A model generated the notes under the pieces. The model was not told where the DNA came from and did no database searches. It worked only from the letters and a program-made list of their open reading frames with translations. Shown piece by piece: positions 20,768-27,792 of a DNA stretch of 64,000 nucleotides; the first letter of the stretch is position 1; each line of letters starts with the position of its first letter. The position numbers and the translations under genes were made by a program. Source of the DNA: an uncultured Pelagibacteraceae bacterium (GTDB taxonomy: Bacteria > Pseudomonadota > Alphaproteobacteria > Pelagibacterales > Pelagibacteraceae); the NCBI GenBank assembly GCA_902612345.1, contig CACMDE010000001.1, forward strand, positions 124,001 through 188,000, given 5' to 3'.

Positions 20768-22140
20768 TGGAATATATAAGTACAAGAAATAATCAGAAAT
20801 GCTTTACATTTAAGGATGTTTTCCTCAAAGGTTTGGCAGATGACGGAGGTCTTTTTGTACCAAAATCGTTTAAACCACTAAATAAACAAGAATTAAATAA
20901 TCTCAAAAGTCTTGAATATAATGATTTAGCGGTAGAAATAATTTATCCTTTTATTGGAGATTTCATGTCTAAAGATGAATTAATCTCCACTATATCAAAA
21001 TCTTATTCAAATTTTAGATCTAACGATGTCGTAAAAATCTCTAATTTAGGAAATTTAAAAGTTTTAGAATTATTCCATGGACCTACACTCGCATTTAAAG
21101 ATATTGCAATGCAATTAATAGGCAATTTTTATCAATACTATTTAGGGTGTGATCAAAAAAAAATTAATATAATAGTGGCAACTTCAGGTGATACTGGTGC
21201 AGCCGCTATTGATGCATTAAAAGGAAAAGAAAATTTAAACGTATTTGTGTTGCATCCAAATAATAGAATTTCACCAGTACAAAGGAAACTAATGACGATA
21301 CATGACGATAGCAATGTATATAATATTGCAATAGAGGGTAACTTTGATGATTGTCAAAATTTAGTAAAAGAAATGTTTAATGACGAAAATTTTTCTAAAA
21401 AAATTAATATGTCAGGAGTAAACTCAATCAACTGGGCAAGAATTATTGCTCAGGCAGTTTATTATTTTTATGCTTATTTTAAAGTAGGAACCGACCAACC
21501 TCTTTCTTTTTCTGTTCCAACAGGAAATTTTGGAGACATTTATGCAGGCTACTTAGCAAAAAAACTAGGTCTTCCAATTGATAAATTAATTGTGGCTACA
21601 AATAAAAATGACATTCTTCACAGAGCAATATCTGGAGGTGATTACACTCAAAAGAAAGTTGAAGAGACAAATACACCAAGCATGGATATTCAGATAGCAA
21701 GTAACTTTGAAAGGCTTTTATACGACGTAAAAAATTGCAACTCAGAAGTTACCAAAGACGTAATGAGTAAAATTAAAAAAAATAAATATAAAATAGATAA
21801 AAGTGATTTAGAAGAGATTAAAAAGAATTTTACCTCTGAGATGCTTGATGAAAATGAAACTATTGAAATGATAAAAATAATTTATGAGCAAAACAAAATA
21901 GTAGTCGATCCTCATACTGCAGTTGGTATCGGTGCCTTAAGAAAGCTAGGATTAGAAAAAAATTGTGTTGTATTATCAACTGCACATCCTTGTAAATTTC
22001 CAAAAGCAATAGAAGATGCAATTTCAAAAACCGAGAATTTACCAGATAGTCTAAAATTTGTTAATAATAGAGAAGAAAAATTTGAAGTTCTTTCAAACGA
22101 TATAGAAAAAGTAAAAAACTATGTATTGAATTCAATATGA
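20767..22140 (+). CDS. thrC: Threonine synthase
   Basis: PLP enzyme converting O-phosphohomoserine to threonine. The 457-residue length fits the long fungal/alphaproteobacterial form. Visible are YISTRNNQKCFTFKDVFLKGLADDGGLFVP at the N-terminus, the PLP lysine region HGPTLAFKDIAMQ, the phosphate site ATSGDTGAAA, and SVPTGNFGDIYAGY. Its partner thrB lies at 27.8-28.8 kb on the other side of the accessory island. Confidence 0.96.
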   Translation: MEYISTRNNQKCFTFKDVFLKGLADDGGLFVPKSFKPLNKQELNNLKSLEYNDLAVEIIYPFIGDFMSKDELISTISKSYSNFRSNDVVKISNLGNLKVLELFHGPTLAFKDIAMQLIGNFYQYYLGCDQKKINIIVATSGDTGAAAIDALKGKENLNVFVLHPNNRISPVQRKLMTIHDDSNVYNIAIEGNFDDCQNLVKEMFNDENFSKKINMSGVNSINWARIIAQAVYYFYAYFKVGTDQPLSFSVPTGNFGDIYAGYLAKKLGLPIDKLIVATNKNDILHRAISGGDYTQKKVEETNTPSMDIQIASNFERLLYDVKNCNSEVTKDVMSKIKKNKYKIDKSDLEEIKKNFTSEMLDENETIEMIKIIYEQNKIVVDPHTAVGIGALRKLGLEKNCVVLSTAHPCKFPKAIEDAISKTENLPDSLKFVNNREEKFEVLSNDIEKVKNYVLNSI

Positions 22141-22622
22141 AACTCAAAATAAAAGATCAAATACCAGACACTGAAATTTTCCAGTTAATTGATGGAGAAC
22201 CGCAACAAAGCAAATTAAGAAAGATCTTAGGTAATGGTAAAATTATTTTGTTTGGCTTACCAGGAGCATTTACCTCAACCTGCTCAAAACTTCATCTTCC
22301 AGGTTTCGTAGCAAATGCAGATAAAATTAAAGAAAAAGGAATAGAAAATATATTTTGTTTATCAGTAAATGACCCTTATGTAATGGATGCGTGGGGAAAG
22401 GTAAATAATACTGGAGATAAAATTAAAATGTTATCTGATCCATATTTATTATTTACAAAAGCAATTGGCGCAGAAGTTGATAGAAATTCTAAAGGAATGG
22501 GTACCAGATCAAATCGTTATACAATGGTTATTGAAAACTTAGAAGTAGTATATATTTATGTTGAAAAAGAGACTAAACAATGTGGTCTGACTTCAGCAAA
22601 AAGCATTTTAGATATCCTTTAA
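22137..22622 (+). CDS. Peroxiredoxin, Prx5/AhpE-like
   Basis: Thiol peroxidase of the redoxin family, 161 residues. The peroxidatic cysteine lies in GLPGAFTSTCSKLHLPGF. The later CLSVNDPYVMDAW and GTRSNRYTMVI segments are characteristic of the PRX5 group. It overlaps thrC by 4 nt (ATGA). This is the last clearly core gene before the accessory island. In other Alphaproteobacteria a peroxiredoxin often neighbours rnhA, which here lies 4.7 kb away. Confidence 0.92.
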   Translation: MKLKIKDQIPDTEIFQLIDGEPQQSKLRKILGNGKIILFGLPGAFTSTCSKLHLPGFVANADKIKEKGIENIFCLSVNDPYVMDAWGKVNNTGDKIKMLSDPYLLFTKAIGAEVDRNSKGMGTRSNRYTMVIENLEVVYIYVEKETKQCGLTSAKSILDIL

Positions 22623-23529: not shown

Positions 23530-23553
23530 GGGGAGGGTATTCTGTTGCCCGGC
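23530..23553 (+). repeat. Island repeat, degenerate copy 1
   Basis: Starts GGGG and contains TTCTGTTGCC, the core shared with the better copies at 24330, 24798 and 27343, followed by CGGC. It has lost the GTGCCCC half. It lies between the methyltransferase-like gene and the end of the minus-strand 80-aa gene. The same orientation as the other copies suggests a common origin; on its own it would be a weak call. Confidence 0.45.
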
Positions 23554-23803: not shown

Positions 23804-23838
23804 AAAGATATCTTAATAAACTTTAGTCTAAACTTAAA

Positions 23839-23865
23839 GGGGCGTTCTGTATCCCGCCCTCGGTC
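23839..23865 (+). repeat. Island repeat, diverged copy 2
   Basis: Begins with the same GGGGCGTTCTGT as the identical copies at 24798 and 27343, then diverges to ATCCCGCCCTCGGTC. The preceding TTAAA is shared with copy 24798. It lies between the divergent starts of the 80-aa and 114-aa genes. The GC-rich 27 bases stand out in very AT-rich surroundings. Confidence 0.55.
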
Positions 23866-23986: not shown

Positions 23987-24331
23987 ATGCAAAAGGTTAA
24001 AGATTTAAAATCATTAGAAAAATTTTCTAAATTATACAAAGATTATAAAATTTTGAATTTTGACAGCGGAAATATAAAAAAGGAAGATTTTGAAAATAAT
24101 ACAAAACTAATACTTTCTTCATTGCAGCATCTTGTGCCAATAATTGAAGAATTTGATAATACGACCCCAACAACTCAAATTACATTTCAAGTTATAACCG
24201 AGGGTTTTGTTACCAAGAAGAAATTTACTGATGTTCAGTTAAATATTAAGAGGTGGCAGGAAGTCACAAAATTATCAGGTGGTTCTGATCAACTTAATCG
24301 AATTCTTTCAATGTTAACTGGTTCTCATTAG
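23987..24331 (+). CDS. Hypothetical protein, island gene
   Basis: A 114-residue protein I do not recognise. It has no signal peptide or membrane segment. It is mixed alpha/beta in appearance, with a Lys-rich helical start (KDLKSLEKFSKLYKDYKIL), a central DNTTPTTQITFQVITEG strand-like stretch and a C-terminal helix ending LNRILSMLTGSH. Three direct repeats lie upstream and island repeats bound it at 23839 and 24330, so it behaves as a single-gene cassette. Function unknown. Confidence 0.6.
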   Translation: MQKVKDLKSLEKFSKLYKDYKILNFDSGNIKKEDFENNTKLILSSLQHLVPIIEEFDNTTPTTQITFQVITEGFVTKKKFTDVQLNIKRWQEVTKLSGGSDQLNRILSMLTGSH

Positions 24332-24354
24332 GACGTTCTGTTGCCAGGTGCCTT
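24330..24354 (+). repeat. Island repeat, near-complete copy 3
   Basis: Differs from the 25-bp copies at 24798 and 27343 mainly at its two ends: it reads AGGACG instead of GGGGCG and GTGCCTT instead of GTGCCCC, with the 15-base core TTCTGTTGCCAGGTG intact. The ends changed on both sides, weakening the stem that the other copies can form. It overlaps the stop codon of the 114-aa gene and is followed by the 23-aa peptide gene on the minus strand. Confidence 0.75.
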
Positions 24355-24358
24355 ACAA

Positions 24359-24430
24359 TTAACCACCACCAAATGTCACCAGAACATATAAAATTAATAT
24401 TGCTAACCCTAGCATTACTATGTAGTGCAT
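24359..24430 (-). CDS. 23-residue single-helix membrane peptide
   Basis: A short ORF on the minus strand encodes MHYIVMLGLAILILYVLVTF followed by GGG and a TAA stop. The whole peptide is one hydrophobic helix with a short N-terminus. A near-perfect Shine-Dalgarno sequence, AAGGAG at 24436-24441, lies 5 nt upstream of the ATG, which is unusual in this genome where such sites are sparse. It follows the 112-aa secreted protein gene by 18 nt on the same strand. No function is known; a chance ORF cannot be excluded. Confidence 0.5.
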   Translation of the reverse strand: MHYIVMLGLAILILYVLVTFGGG

Positions 24431-24435
24431 ATTTT

Positions 24436-24441
24436 CTCCTT
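24436..24441 (-). promoter_or_regulatory. Strong ribosome binding site of the 23-aa peptide
   Basis: AAGGAG on the minus strand with a 5-nt spacer to the ATG at 24430. It is the main reason to believe the short ORF is translated. Confidence 0.5.
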
Positions 24442-24448
24442 AAAGTTT

Positions 24449-24787
24449 TTATCTTCCTCGACACCCGTAAGTGGTAAAGTACGTTTTAAATTGTTTCTTT
24501 CTTTCTTTTGATATCCAACATTGTCCTTTACTAGAATCATAATATATTCTTTTAACTTCAAATGAATCAATTTCTTTTCCATTAGCATATACTTTTAAAT
24601 ATTGACCCAATGAAACAGAATTACGATTAGTTTTAACATTTTTTGTACTCATCGTACAAAAAATTCCTGTAAATCCACAATCATTATATGCAGCATCTTT
24701 ACCGCTCCATGAAGCAGACCTAACATAATCTCCAGCAAATGCTGAAGTGTGAATTAATAAAAAAAGTAATACAACAATCCGTATCAT
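24449..24787 (-). CDS. Secreted small cysteine-containing protein
   Basis: A 112-residue protein with a clear Sec signal peptide (MIRIVVLLFLLIHTSAFAG, cleavage near residue 18 at AFA-G). The mature part is small, basic and has four cysteines (in DCGF, IFCTMS, QCWI and GCRG), which could form two disulphides in the periplasm. I do not recognise a family. It is bounded by island repeats at 24330 and 24798 and is followed by a 23-aa membrane peptide gene. Function unknown. Confidence 0.65.
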   Translation of the reverse strand: MIRIVVLLFLLIHTSAFAGDYVRSASWSGKDAAYNDCGFTGIFCTMSTKNVKTNRNSVSLGQYLKVYANGKEIDSFEVKRIYYDSSKGQCWISKERKKQFKTYFTTYGCRGR

Positions 24788-24797
24788 AAATTTTAAA

Positions 24798-24822
24798 GGG
24801 GCGTTCTGTTGCCAGGTGCCCC
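24798..24822 (+). repeat. Island 25-bp repeat, left copy bracketing the nuclease module
   Basis: Identical over 25 bases to the copy at 27343-27367. The ends GGGGCG and TGCCCC can pair as a 6-bp stem with one G-T wobble around a 13-base loop TTCTGTTGCCAGG. It lies between divergent genes, so it is not a terminator for either. With the right copy it frames a 2.5-kb segment containing only the nuclease module. Confidence 0.85.
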
Positions 24823-24834
24823 GAACTTTGTAAC

Positions 24835-24850
24835 ATTATTCGCGAATAAT
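24835..24850. promoter_or_regulatory. Perfect 16-bp palindrome upstream of the nuclease module
   Basis: ATTATTCGCGAATAAT, a perfect inverted repeat, 75 bp before the ATG of the McrB-N/DUF3883 gene and 48 bp from the start of the divergent secreted-protein gene. It is a plausible operator for a dimeric regulator. Which protein binds it is unknown; the winged-helix N-terminus of the nuclease gene is one candidate. Confidence 0.5.
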
Positions 24851-24880
24851 TTGAATTGAAAAGTGAGGAATTTCAATAGA

Positions 24881-24902
24881 AGTGCGATCGTAGTGCGGAC
24901 AG
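24881..24902 (+). repeat. Tandem pair of 11-nt GC-rich units, left of the nuclease module
   Basis: Two adjacent 11-base units, AGTGCGATCGT and AGTGCGGACAG, lie 23 nt before the ATG at 24926. A similar tandem pair follows the module at 27277-27298, and the 11-mer TAGTGCGGACA is exact in both places (24891 and 27276). In DNA this AT-rich, a flanking exact GC-rich 11-mer is unlikely by chance. Confidence 0.6.
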
Positions 24903-24925
24903 GTTTTTTGTGTTAAGCTAAAAAA

Positions 24926-26434
24926 ATGGCAACCTATAAAGCTGATATAATACAGGCGCTTAAAAATTTAGGTGGTTCAGCTCATCTTAAACAAATTCAT
25001 AAAGAAGTAGCCAGGTTAAGAAAAGGAAAGCTTAAGAAAACCTGGAAATATTCTATTCAAGAAAATCTACAAAGACATTCTTCAGACTCAATTTATGGAA
25101 GAGGAAAATATGGAAGTGGAGATGATATTTTTTATATGGTCGAAGGGAAAAGAAAGGGCATATGGGGTCTGAGGGAAATGTCAGAAAATATAAAAAATTA
25201 TAAGAGTAGTGTTAGTTTAAGCGATATTATAAAAAAAATATCAAAAGATTGGATTAACTACAGAAAAGCATCAGAAGGAGTTAATAAAGTTGGCTCCAAA
25301 ATTAAAAGAGTTAATCAAAATCATCCCATGTATGATTTAGTAATTAATCAATGGTCAGATAAAATATCAGAAAATGTAAACCTCAAAAAATACAAAGTTG
25401 AGTCAAAGCTTGGCGATGGACAGCTATCAGCTGGTCCGTGGCTAGCAATAATGGATAGAAGTTTGACTGAAACTGCTACAGAGGAGTTTTATGTTGTATA
25501 TTTGTTTTCAAGGTCAGCACAAAAACTCTATTTATCTATAGGTATAGGTGCAACTCAATTTCAAGAAATTTATGGAATGACAAATTTGTGTGTTGAGAAA
25601 TTAGATTTGGCTGCAAAAGAATTCAGAAACTTATTTGATAAATATAAACCGAAAAACACTATTAAAAAGATAGACATATTAGAGGATAAATTAAACTTTG
25701 AACCACCTCTAAAAGGAAGTTCAAGAAACTTGAATATATTATATGAAAAAGGTGTTAGTTTTTCAAAAGAATATGATCTAAGCAATATTAATGACGAAAT
25801 ATTGGTTCAAGATTTAAAAGATTATATTAATATTTATGCAAATATTATTAATGATCCTAAGTCAGAGAACTTAAATATTCTAGCTGAAACTTTAATAAGC
25901 AAAGATGAAATTAAAAAAAATCAAGACAATAGTAAAATAGAATACGATTATAAAATAAAGGATTTTCAACCTAAAAATAAAAAAAAGGTAAAAACTAAAA
26001 CTACAGTCGCTAACCAGGCAAAAAATAAAAGAAAAACTCAAGACTCAAAATTAATTGGAAAAAAAGGTGAAAACTATGTTTGTGAATTTGAAAGAAAAAA
26101 ACTTAAAAAAATTAATAGAGAAGATTTGGCAAAAAAAGTTTACAATCACGATGATAATAATGAATTTCCAGGTTGGGATATAACTTCTTATGATGAAAAA
26201 GGAAATGAGATCTATATTGAGGTTAAATCATCAAGAAAGAGTAAAACAGTTTTTAATATAACTGCACCAGAGTGGGAAGCGGCAAAGAAACAAGGAGATA
26301 AATATTTTATATATTTAGTTGAAAATGCACTTAATAATAAAATTAAAATAGCTGGAAGAATTAAAAATCCTGCAAAGCATGCACAACAAAAGAAAATTGA
26401 AGTAAATATCTCAGCTTATGAGATAAGATTGTAG
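24926..26434 (+). CDS. Winged-helix / McrB-N (DUF3578) / DUF3883 nuclease fusion, predicted modification-dependent restriction factor
   Basis: A 502-residue, probably cytoplasmic protein in three parts. Residues 1-85 look like a winged helix-turn-helix (ADIIQALKNLGGSAHLKQI, ending KGIWGLRE). Residues about 95-235 match the McrB N-terminal domain, DUF3578 (HPMYDLVINQW, GDGQLSAGPWLAIMD, EEFYVVYLFS), which in McrB reads methylated cytosine. After a Lys-rich linker, residues about 375-502 match DUF3883: GKKGENYV with Glu382, GWDITSY with Asp418, and EVKSS with Glu432 and Lys434, a PD-(D/E)XK-type active site, then APEWEAAKKQGDKYFIY. No McrB GTPase or McrC is present. The EEP gene follows by 7 nt. 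The family calls are by motif recognition; restriction activity is inferred. Confidence 0.75.
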   Translation: MATYKADIIQALKNLGGSAHLKQIHKEVARLRKGKLKKTWKYSIQENLQRHSSDSIYGRGKYGSGDDIFYMVEGKRKGIWGLREMSENIKNYKSSVSLSDIIKKISKDWINYRKASEGVNKVGSKIKRVNQNHPMYDLVINQWSDKISENVNLKKYKVESKLGDGQLSAGPWLAIMDRSLTETATEEFYVVYLFSRSAQKLYLSIGIGATQFQEIYGMTNLCVEKLDLAAKEFRNLFDKYKPKNTIKKIDILEDKLNFEPPLKGSSRNLNILYEKGVSFSKEYDLSNINDEILVQDLKDYINIYANIINDPKSENLNILAETLISKDEIKKNQDNSKIEYDYKIKDFQPKNKKKVKTKTTVANQAKNKRKTQDSKLIGKKGENYVCEFERKKLKKINREDLAKKVYNHDDNNEFPGWDITSYDEKGNEIYIEVKSSRKSKTVFNITAPEWEAAKKQGDKYFIYLVENALNNKIKIAGRIKNPAKHAQQKKIEVNISAYEIRL

Positions 26435-26441
26435 GTGGTCC

Positions 26442-27269
26442 ATGCGTGTAATATCATGGAACTTAGGGAAAAATTTTAAAATAATAGAACAACAATTAAA
26501 AATTGTTGATGAAGAAAAACCTGACATATTAGCTTTACAGGAAGTAACCAGTAAAAGTTACAAAATAATAAATGAAATTTTGAGACCAAAGTTTAAGCAT
26601 ATACATTTTAGTCTAGATTTAATTAAAGATAATAAATTGTCAGTTGGTCCTAGAAAATTAGGAGTTTTAACTGCATCAAATTATAAATTAGAAATGAGAG
26701 ATTTAAATGAGTTTAATATTCCGTGGAGAGAAAGAATACTTAATCATAATATTTATACAGGTAAGAAAAAGATTAGATTCTATAATGCATACATACCTCC
26801 AGGTTCTTCTAATGGTTGGATTAAAATTGAAACTTTAGAAGGTATATTTGAAGGTTTAAATACAACAAGTTCAGATCCAAGGATTTTATGTGGAGATTTT
26901 AATATACCGCAATCAGAAAATCATAGACATAACATTATTACTTTTGCACAAAAAATGAAACTAAAGGGCAAACCCAGACTTAAGAAAAGCTTCAGGGGCG
27001 GAAGTGGAAAAAGATGGGATCAAGCTGAAAGAAATTTATTTGAAAACTTAAAGCCAGTAGGTATGCAAGATAGTTATAGAAAGAAGCATTCTTACAAAAC
27101 CTATGAATATTCATTTGCAATTATAAGAAAAGGTAAAGTAGCAGCTAAAAGACGGTTTGATCATTTTTTTACATCAGATGATTTATCTGTAAATCAAATT
27201 GGATACCTGCACTCATATAGAGAAAAAAAATTAAGTGACCATTCACCTATACAAATTGATTTAGATTAA
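26442..27269 (+). CDS. Endonuclease/exonuclease/phosphatase (EEP) family protein, partner of the nuclease module
   Basis: A 275-residue protein of the DNase I-like EEP fold. Catalytic residues are in place: Asn7 in RVISWNLG, Glu34 in DILALQEV, Asp152 and Asn154 in CGDFNIP, and Asp266/His267 in LSDHSPIQIDL. FDHFFTSDDL supplies a further conserved aspartate. It could cut DNA like exonuclease III or act on RNA or a phosphoester. The 7-nt gap to the upstream gene, with AGGTGG at 26433-26438 before its ATG, shows cotranscription. It lies inside the same repeat-bounded cassette and has no homologue elsewhere in the window. Confidence 0.82.
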   Translation: MRVISWNLGKNFKIIEQQLKIVDEEKPDILALQEVTSKSYKIINEILRPKFKHIHFSLDLIKDNKLSVGPRKLGVLTASNYKLEMRDLNEFNIPWRERILNHNIYTGKKKIRFYNAYIPPGSSNGWIKIETLEGIFEGLNTTSSDPRILCGDFNIPQSENHRHNIITFAQKMKLKGKPRLKKSFRGGSGKRWDQAERNLFENLKPVGMQDSYRKKHSYKTYEYSFAIIRKGKVAAKRRFDHFFTSDDLSVNQIGYLHSYREKKLSDHSPIQIDLD

Positions 27270-27276
27270 ATTTACT

Positions 27277-27298
27277 AGTGCGGACACAGAGCGGATAA
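27277..27298 (+). repeat. Tandem pair of 11-nt GC-rich units, right of the nuclease module
   Basis: Units AGTGCGGACAC and AGAGCGGATAA follow the EEP stop codon by 7 nt. The first unit, preceded by T, repeats exactly the 11-mer TAGTGCGGACA found before the module at 24891-24901, in the same orientation. Confidence 0.55.
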
Positions 27299-27342
27299 AA
27301 TTAAATTTATCTATATAATTGTTGATAAATATAAGATGCTAA

Positions 27343-27367
27343 GGGGCGTTCTGTTGCCAGGTGCCCC
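27343..27367 (+). repeat. Island 25-bp repeat, right copy bracketing the nuclease module
   Basis: Identical to the 25-bp copy at 24798-24822 and in the same orientation, 2545 bp away. It ends 2 nt before the rnhA stop codon, marking the right boundary of the island against core genes. No T-tract follows, so terminator function is unlikely. Confidence 0.85.
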
Positions 27368-27369
27368 AA

Positions 27370-27792
27370 TTATAAGTATGCCGCTCCCCTAGCAATTAAA
27401 TCTACTTCATTATTTAATTTATCAGTTGAGTGTGCTTTTACCCAACTCCATTTAATATCAAATTCATTTACAAGTAGATCTAACTCTATCCAAAGATCTT
27501 TATTTTTAACTTTTTGTTTACTAGCAGTTTTCCATCCATTTTTTTTCCAATTATAAATCCATTCAGTTATTCCAGATTTTACATATTTAGAATCTGTAAA
27601 AATTTGAACCTTACTACCTTTAGGGATTTTTTTTAGAGCTTTAATTGGTGCCAACAATTCCATCTGATTATTTGTTGTATCTTTTTTACTTCCTTTAATT
27701 TCAGTTTTTTTTCCATCATTTATTATTATTGCTGCCCAACCACCTTTACCTGGATTTCCTATACATGAACCATCAGTGTATACTTTAATCAT
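27370..27792 (-). CDS. rnhA: Ribonuclease HI
   Basis: Degrades the RNA strand of RNA-DNA hybrids. The 140-residue length is normal. Catalytic residues appear in VYTDGSCIGNPGKGGWAA (Asp), TNNQMELLAPIKAL (Glu), IFTDSKYVKSGI (Asp) and KAHSTDKLNNEVD (His and Asp). It overlaps the thrB stop by one base and is the last gene of the long minus-strand run. A second RNase H, rnhB, is at 43.3 kb. Confidence 0.96.
   Translation of the reverse strand: MIKVYTDGSCIGNPGKGGWAAIIINDGKKTEIKGSKKDTTNNQMELLAPIKALKKIPKGSKVQIFTDSKYVKSGITEWIYNWKKNGWKTASKQKVKNKDLWIELDLLVNEFDIKWSWVKAHSTDKLNNEVDLIARGAAYL

What the first reader, a model, noticed from the sequence alone, without database searches (positions are those of the whole stretch)
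24926..27269. Candidate undescribed two-gene nuclease/defence module: wHTH-McrB_N-DUF3883 fusion plus EEP nuclease
One 502-aa protein combines a winged-helix start, an McrB N-terminal (DUF3578) modified-base reader and a C-terminal DUF3883 domain with PD-(D/E)XK residues (Glu382, Asp418, Glu432, Lys434). A 275-aa EEP-fold protein with a complete catalytic set follows after 7 nt. Classical McrBC has a GTPase motor and a separate McrC nuclease; both are absent here. A single-chain reader-cutter with a second nuclease or phosphoesterase partner would be a compact modification-dependent restriction or abortive system. It sits alone in a repeat-bounded cassette in an otherwise streamlined genome that rarely keeps restriction systems. 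Domain identities come from motif recognition.
Basis: partly seen in the sequence, partly recalled or inferred. Interest (0 to 1): 0.82.

Follow-up and report, generated by a model that had tools for sequence, protein, structure and literature searches.

The report
Restriction gene in tmRNA-bounded mobile cassette
A likely one-protein "cut modified DNA" enzyme sits in an ocean SAR11 bacterium inside a small mobile gene cassette whose ends are copies of the tail of the tmRNA gene, and its supposed partner nuclease is probably only a fellow passenger.

Summary
The domains are real. The 502-aa protein carries MrcB_N (1.2e-31) and NOV_C/DUF3883 (3.5e-19), with Glu382, Asp418, Glu432 and Lys434 invariant in relatives. 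The model matches McrB's base-flipping domain and PD-(D/E)XK nucleases. The 275-aa gene is a complete EEP/ExoIII-like protein. The winged helix could not be verified.

The two-gene system is not supported. EEP genes 97-98% identical sit beside a HIT gene or an unknown 231-aa gene. MrcB_N-NOV_C proteins occur without EEP in every other locus examined.

The flanking repeats are the 3' end of the tmRNA gene (ssrA). At least 35 of 101 genus genomes carry two or more copies, bounding 0.2-2.8 kb cassettes without an integrase, beside ssrA or at secondary sites. Here the secondary site is the rnhA-redoxin junction, where some relatives hold a single tmRNA-like sequence in a 36-39 nt gap. Six cassettes share this one's ends but not its cargo.

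Best reading: a solo modification-dependent restriction enzyme carried by a tmRNA-targeted additive cassette. The same N-terminal domain is joined elsewhere to SRA-HNH, MrcB_N-HNH and X-NOV_C, supporting a swappable reader-cutter family. The EEP is separate cargo. Target modification, activity and recombinase remain unknown.

The parts
24796..27367 (.). the cassette, repeat to repeat
   Evidence: exact 27-nt repeat at both ends; both ends shared with cassettes of other genomes that carry other cargo
24926..26434 (+). 502-aa protein: N-terminal shared domain, MrcB_N, linker, NOV_C (PD-(D/E)XK); likely modification-dependent restriction endonuclease
24926..25195 (+). N-terminal domain (aa 1-90), shared at 52-60% identity with SAR11 proteins carrying other reader/nuclease domains; winged helix unverified
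25304..25846 (+). MrcB_N (DUF3578/ADAM) domain, aa 127-307, putative modified-base reader
   Evidence: structural match to E. coli McrB DNA-binding domain, Z 9.0-9.8
26066..26341 (+). NOV_C (DUF3883) PD-(D/E)XK nuclease domain, aa 381-472
   Evidence: invariant E382, D418, E432, K434; matches SPARDA nuclease and Hjc
26442..27269 (+). 275-aa EEP/ExoIII-like protein, probably independent cargo
27341..27367 (-). tmRNA 3'-end repeat beside rnhA (att-like)
24796..24822 (-). tmRNA 3'-end repeat, other end of the cassette (att-like; GTTCGGGG flank retained)
   Evidence: (RF01849, 28.9 bits, below gathering 50)
24328..24354 (-). tmRNA 3'-end repeat, next cassette boundary, 2 mismatches in 21
23837..23863 (-). 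degenerate tmRNA-like repeat, 6 mismatches in 21
23535..23552 (-). degenerate tmRNA-like repeat, 6 mismatches in 21
27276..27286 (-). TGTCCGCACTA, putative recombinase arm-type site inside the right end
   Evidence: conserved position in L059/L198, L076, L117/L199
24891..24901 (-). TGTCCGCACTA, putative arm-type site inside the left end
   Evidence: conserved position in L059/L198, L076, L202
24449..24787 (-). 112-aa ORF, sole gene of the neighbouring cassette (24328-24822)
23987..24331 (+). 114-aa ORF in the next repeat-bounded segment
22623..27369 (.). island between redoxin (22137-22622 +) and rnhA (27370-27792 -), which are 0-60 nt apart in many relatives

Best explanation
The 502-aa protein most likely acts alone as a modification-dependent (type IV-like) restriction endonuclease. 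MrcB_N flips out and recognises a modified cytosine, and the C-terminal NOV_C PD-(D/E)XK domain, probably as a dimer, cuts nearby without NTP-driven translocation (inferred). It was delivered as cargo of a small non-autonomous integrative cassette. A site-specific, probably tyrosine, recombinase acting in trans (inferred, not found) inserts such cassettes at the 3' end of the tmRNA gene or at copies of that end elsewhere. Each insertion leaves another tmRNA-end repeat, so cassettes accumulate in head-to-tail arrays (shown by comparison). The EEP gene is a separate passenger that sits next to the att end with different neighbours in other genomes (shown for relatives; its function here is inferred).
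For: Domains and catalytic residues. Structure: residues 97-318 match the McrB DNA-binding domain (Z 9.0-9.8, rmsd about 4 A over about 145 residues) and 370-498 match PD-(D/E)XK enzymes (Z up to 10.0). The A2 profile matches E. coli McrB-N at E=0.002, aligning W172 with W49 and L193 with L68. The same N-terminal domain is joined to SRA-HNH, MrcB_N-HNH and X-NOV_C in other SAR11 genomes. Solo MrcB_N-NOV_C genes occur elsewhere, for example next to guaA in Psychrobacter and in a Vibrio phage. Repeats equal the ssrA 3' end. 77 of 101 genus genomes hold the exact 15-mer against 0 for the reversed control, and 35 hold two or more. 41 cassettes span 204-2783 bp, with ORFs 58 antisense to 8 sense relative to ssrA. 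Conserved ends with swapped cargo. Empty site. Relatives of this gene also lie in ssrA cassettes.
Against: No biochemical data. The McrB pocket residue Tyr41 is Asp164 here (read from the alignment), so the substrate may differ. No recombinase was found: no PF00589 match in this 83%-complete assembly, and other integrases in the genus are not beside tmRNA repeats. The intact ssrA is missing from this assembly. The pair is 7 nt apart on one strand, so co-transcription is likely and cooperation cannot be excluded in this genome.
Confidence: 0.62

Rival explanations
1. A true two-gene system: the MrcB_N-NOV_C protein nicks or cuts modified DNA and the EEP nuclease or phosphoesterase extends the damage or causes abortive infection.
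For: Same strand, 7-nt gap; both complete; EEP usually follows another gene closely, one of them a DUF4268 PDC-S11 defence candidate.
Against: Pair seen only in this genome among 399 genus genomes scanned for each gene. EEP's other neighbours are HIT, GNAT, DUF6994 and unknown proteins. No EEP beside relatives in the loci scanned. Homology between the G223 and window cassettes stops exactly at the 502-aa gene's stop codon.
Confidence: 0.15
2. The 502-aa protein is an ordinary restriction endonuclease reading an unmodified sequence, with a protecting methyltransferase elsewhere.
For: MrcB_N specificity was not tested; the McrB Tyr41 position is not conserved.
Against: No DNA methyltransferase beside the relatives inspected; solo occurrence; domain swaps with SRA-HNH readers.
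Confidence: 0.13
3. The repeats are bidirectional terminators or REP-like elements copied around the genome, not attachment sites.
For: GGGGC/GCCCC arms followed by TT; one copy lies between the convergent genes rnhA and redoxin in some relatives.
Against: Identity covers the whole tmRNA 3' end including non-stem bases; intact ssrA is one boundary of many arrays; cassette ends conserved about 100 bp inwards with repeated TGTCCGCACTA sites while the cargo differs.
Confidence: 0.07
4. Cassettes are exchanged by homologous recombination between neighbouring repeats and conserved ends, with no dedicated recombinase.
For: No integrase family among the cassette ORFs listed and none in the own genome.
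Against: The repeat is only about 25 bp; insertions at ssrA recur in one orientation; several end-types with distinct inner ends.
Confidence: 0.2

Closest known systems
McrBC type IV restriction (EcoKMcrBC; PMC3874153, PMC11090510)
   Same: MrcB_N (DUF3578/ADAM) reader; structural match Z 9.0-9.8
Single-chain modification-dependent REases such as SRA-HNH TagI (PMC6212794) and EVE-HNH VcaM4I (PMC7897488)
   Same: Reader plus nuclease in one chain; a SAR11 protein with the same N-terminal domain is SRA-HNH
MrcB_N-NOV_C (DUF3578-DUF3883) proteins of Limosilactobacillus plasmids, Psychrobacter and Vibrio phage 10N.222.45.E8_PE001
   Same: Same two-domain core over about 310-345 residues
   Different: They lack the N-terminal domain of aa 1-90; about 24-32% identity
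PADLOC PD-T4-1, TmtA, PDC-S36
   Same: Share the NOV_C C-terminal region
   Different: Match covers only the C-terminal nuclease part
Additive flexible genomic islands at tRNA ends (Methylophilaceae fGI-2, PMC10872708; Actinomarinales, PMC7771536) and Dehalococcoides ssrA islands (PMC2764846, PMC3146451)
   Same: Cassettes marked by direct repeats of the last bases of an RNA gene; serial insertion
   Different: Here the RNA is tmRNA of SAR11, cassettes are 0.2-2.8 kb, no integrase, and secondary arrays lie far from ssrA; I found no SAR11 description in the papers read (PMC7318151, PMC2217521)
Exonuclease III / APE1 (EEP)
   Same: Complete EEP catalytic set; TIGR00633 65 bits
   Different: Below the ExoIII cut-off (99 bits); the genome has another, better-scoring EEP gene

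Membership tests
Modification-dependent (type IV-like) restriction endonuclease, single chain | modified-base reader domain | tested here: met
   PF12102 1.2e-31; McrB-N fold, Z 9.0-9.8. Substrate not shown
Modification-dependent (type IV-like) restriction endonuclease, single chain | nuclease domain with intact active site in the same chain | tested here: met
   PF13020; E382, D418, E432, K434 invariant
Modification-dependent (type IV-like) restriction endonuclease, single chain | cuts modified but not unmodified DNA; no cognate methyltransferase | not testable with these tools
   only the absence of a methyltransferase in neighbours was seen
McrBC | AAA+ GTPase McrB motor | tested here: not met
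   no such Pfam domain in the 502-aa protein or the adjacent EEP
McrBC | McrC nuclease partner | tested here: not met
   partner is an EEP protein; rest of the genome not searched for McrC
Conserved two-gene MrcB_N-NOV_C + EEP system | pair conserved as neighbours | tested here: not met
tRNA/tmRNA-targeted integrative element (additive fGI) | direct repeats of the 3' end of a tRNA/tmRNA gene at the boundaries | tested here: met
tRNA/tmRNA-targeted integrative element (additive fGI) | empty site in relatives | tested here: met
   rnhA-redoxin gap of 36-39 nt holding one tmRNA-like sequence in L092, L093, L095, L098
tRNA/tmRNA-targeted integrative element (additive fGI) | integrase | tested here: inconclusive
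   none in the cassette; no PF00589 match in the own incomplete genome. It could act in trans
Tycheposon | 4-200 kb, tRNA border, tyrosine recombinase inside (as described in PMC10872708) | tested here: not met
   2.57 kb, tmRNA border, no recombinase
Integron | IntI integrase at the array | tested here: not met
   no PF00589 match in the assembly; attC structure not tested
Exonuclease III (TIGR00633) | score above equivalog cut-off | tested here: not met
   65.1 bits against 99.05
Winged-helix fusion endonucleases | winged-helix domain | tested here: inconclusive
   no Pfam match; low-confidence models

The most novel reading that the evidence does not exclude
SAR11 carries an integron-like cassette system without its own integrase that uses the tail of the tmRNA gene as the recombination site, swaps whole genes and reader/nuclease domains between fixed ends, and through it circulates single-protein restriction enzymes. 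T4-like phage contigs that carry an ssrA with the same 3' end may serve as vectors or docking sites.
Probability: 0.3. Interest if true: 0.78.

Novelty: new variant of a known kind. Interest (0 to 1): 0.56.

Why it matters
SAR11 is among the most abundant groups of cells in the ocean and is thought to carry few defence systems and little mobile DNA. A widespread cassette system anchored on tmRNA ends would explain how streamlined genomes gain and swap single genes, including restriction enzymes. It gives a simple sequence tag for finding such cargo.

Tried and rejected
Two-gene module: rejected on neighbour data. Close relatives by single-sequence scan of genome and viral collections: none. 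The first phmmer run for P0002 had no input file and is void. Folding the N-terminal domain alone without an alignment: pLDDT 41, useless, so no fold search was run on it. Integrases of G028, G036, G010, G012 and G054 as the cassette recombinase: no tmRNA repeat within the 10-12 kb stretches fetched around them. EEP in viral contigs and phage records: none. Cognate methyltransferases: inspected neighbours were GuaA, an alcohol dehydrogenase, a polysaccharide lyase, NAD kinase and others. Cassette cargo as purely defensive: not so, Pfam shows mixed functions.

Full report
Observation. The window holds two ORFs on the plus strand, 24926-26434 (502 aa) and 26442-27269 (275 aa), separated by 7 nt. 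Pfam finds MrcB_N (aa 127-307, 1.2e-31) and NOV_C, formerly DUF3883 (aa 381-472, 3.5e-19), in the first and Exo_endo_phos (4.7e-13) in the second. NCBIfam places the second nearest exonuclease III but below its cut-off (65 against 99 bits). The EEP residues N7, E34, D152, N154, D240 and H267 are invariant in eight proteins. The N-terminal winged helix has no profile match and low model confidence, so it remains unverified.

Structure and reader. An AlphaFold2 model made with 26 relatives is confident over most of both main domains. Residues 97-318 align to the DNA-binding domain of E. coli McrB in complexes with modified DNA (Z 9.0-9.8, rmsd about 4 A, about 145 residues). Residues 370-498 align to PD-(D/E)XK nucleases, first the SPARDA effector nuclease (Z 10.0) and Hjc resolvases. 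Foldseek's best hits are the same McrB structures (E 1.3e-3). A sequence profile also reaches E. coli McrB-N (E 0.002), aligning W172 with W49 and L193 with L68; the McrB position Tyr41 is Asp164 here (that these McrB residues belong to the flipped-base pocket is from my own knowledge of the McrB-N structure). The modification read is therefore not predictable.

A family of swapped domains. In other genomes of the genus the N-terminal 90 residues recur at 52-60% identity in front of other cores: SAD_SRA plus HNH in L122 and an unassigned domain plus NOV_C in L123. Two further relatives, L121 and L039, align from the first residue and carry MrcB_N plus HNH. SRA-HNH enzymes are established modification-dependent endonucleases (TagI, PMC6212794). 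The swap of reader and cutter behind one N-terminal domain is the best indirect evidence that the window protein is a restriction enzyme of that kind. It is inference, not an assay.

The pair is not a module. In 297 genomes of the order and 399 of the genus, the nearest EEP homologues (97-98%) lie beside a 144-aa HIT protein (L117) and an unassigned 231-aa protein (L076). More distant ones (65-66%) lie beside DUF4268, GNAT and DUF6994 proteins. Loci of MrcB_N/NOV_C relatives show no EEP in the DNA fetched around them (up to 5 kb on each side): 45 loci from the genome collection and 4 viral ones were scanned, and one of them had no called ORF. The cassettes of G223 and the window are 97.7% identical from the repeat through the EEP gene, and the match stops at the stop codon of the 502-aa gene. 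A second, better-scoring EEP gene exists elsewhere in the genome. The 7-nt spacing makes co-transcription likely, so a local functional link is not excluded.

The repeats are tmRNA ends. Rfam recognises alpha_tmRNA ends at several of the repeats, below the gathering score because the body of the gene is absent. The repeat GGGGCACCTGGCAACAGAACGCCCC is the exact 3' end of intact ssrA in genus relatives. Of 101 genus genomes, 77 hold the 15-mer ACCTGGCAACAGAAC (reversed control 0), and by my count of that table 35 hold two or more copies. In fetched regions the copies bound short cassettes, either directly after intact ssrA, whose upstream neighbour is conserved, or elsewhere. Forty-one cassettes measure 204-2783 bp, and their ORFs run against the ssrA direction in 58 of 66 cases.

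Mobility. The window's island lies between rnhA and a redoxin gene. In many relatives these are convergent and 0-60 nt apart; in four of them (L092, L093, L095, L098) the 36-39 nt gap itself holds one tmRNA-like sequence. One relative has one cassette there (L048) and another three (L056). Six cassettes (this one included) share one or both ends, with the inner motif TGTCCGCACTA at one or both ends in five of them, but carry different cargo. This is the pattern expected of a core crossover site with recombinase arm sites; the recombinase itself is inferred. The own assembly has no tyrosine recombinase match, and integrases of five other genomes are not near tmRNA repeats. Relatives of the 502-aa gene also ride in such cassettes, several beside an ssrA end: L038/L138 (AG-917-K20), L139 (AG-414-D07), L042, L043, L121 and L126.

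Comparison with the literature. Additive islands marked by repeats of the last bases of a tRNA gene are described for Methylophilaceae (PMC10872708) and Actinomarinales (PMC7771536), and ssrA islands for Dehalococcoides (PMC2764846, PMC3146451; abstracts only). A study of SAR11 hypervariable regions reported no integron attC sites and mentions neither tmRNA nor ssrA (PMC2217521); the SAR11 ecogenomics paper does not mention tmRNA (PMC7318151). The tmRNA-end cassettes of SAR11 therefore look like a new variant of a known kind; the library lacks many subscription papers, so prior description cannot be excluded. Phage contigs with a complete ssrA of the same 3' end agree with the report of two-piece tmRNA in related phages (PMC9004378).

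Verdict. The domain observation is right apart from the unverified winged helix, the solo reader-cutter interpretation is supported but unassayed, the two-gene system is not supported, and the most interesting feature is the cassette that carries it.

Noticed in passing
L037, L040, L041, L042, L043, L044, L128: ORFs overlapping the 3' end of MrcB_N genes begin with nearly the same signal peptide (MKKLLGIVVLGLLLSGNAYA) followed by unrelated mature parts, as if a secreted-protein start were reused with variable bodies.
   Followed up: partly
L185-L192 (viral contigs): T4-like phage contigs carry a complete permuted ssrA whose 3' end is identical to the SAR11 repeat; possible docking site or vector for cassettes.
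   Followed up: partly
L055, L056, L062, L063, L068: A second repeat type, TTCTAATCTAATGCCGGGCAACAGAACGCCCC, also bounds cassettes; origin not traced.
   Followed up: no
G000 (own genome): No intact tmRNA gene and no tyrosine recombinase match in the assembly; probably missing contigs at 83% completeness.
   Followed up: partly
L193 (G028:C42:34000-45000): A 427-aa integrase lies on the same stretch as a tRNA-Leu gene, possibly a prophage.
   Followed up: no
L140, L141 (Psychrobacter): Solo MrcB_N-NOV_C gene between guaA and an alcohol dehydrogenase gene in L140; L141 has neighbours of similar sizes.
   Followed up: partly
window 24449-24787: 112-aa orphan protein with a signal-peptide-like start, alone in its own tmRNA-bounded cassette; no Pfam match.
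   Followed up: no
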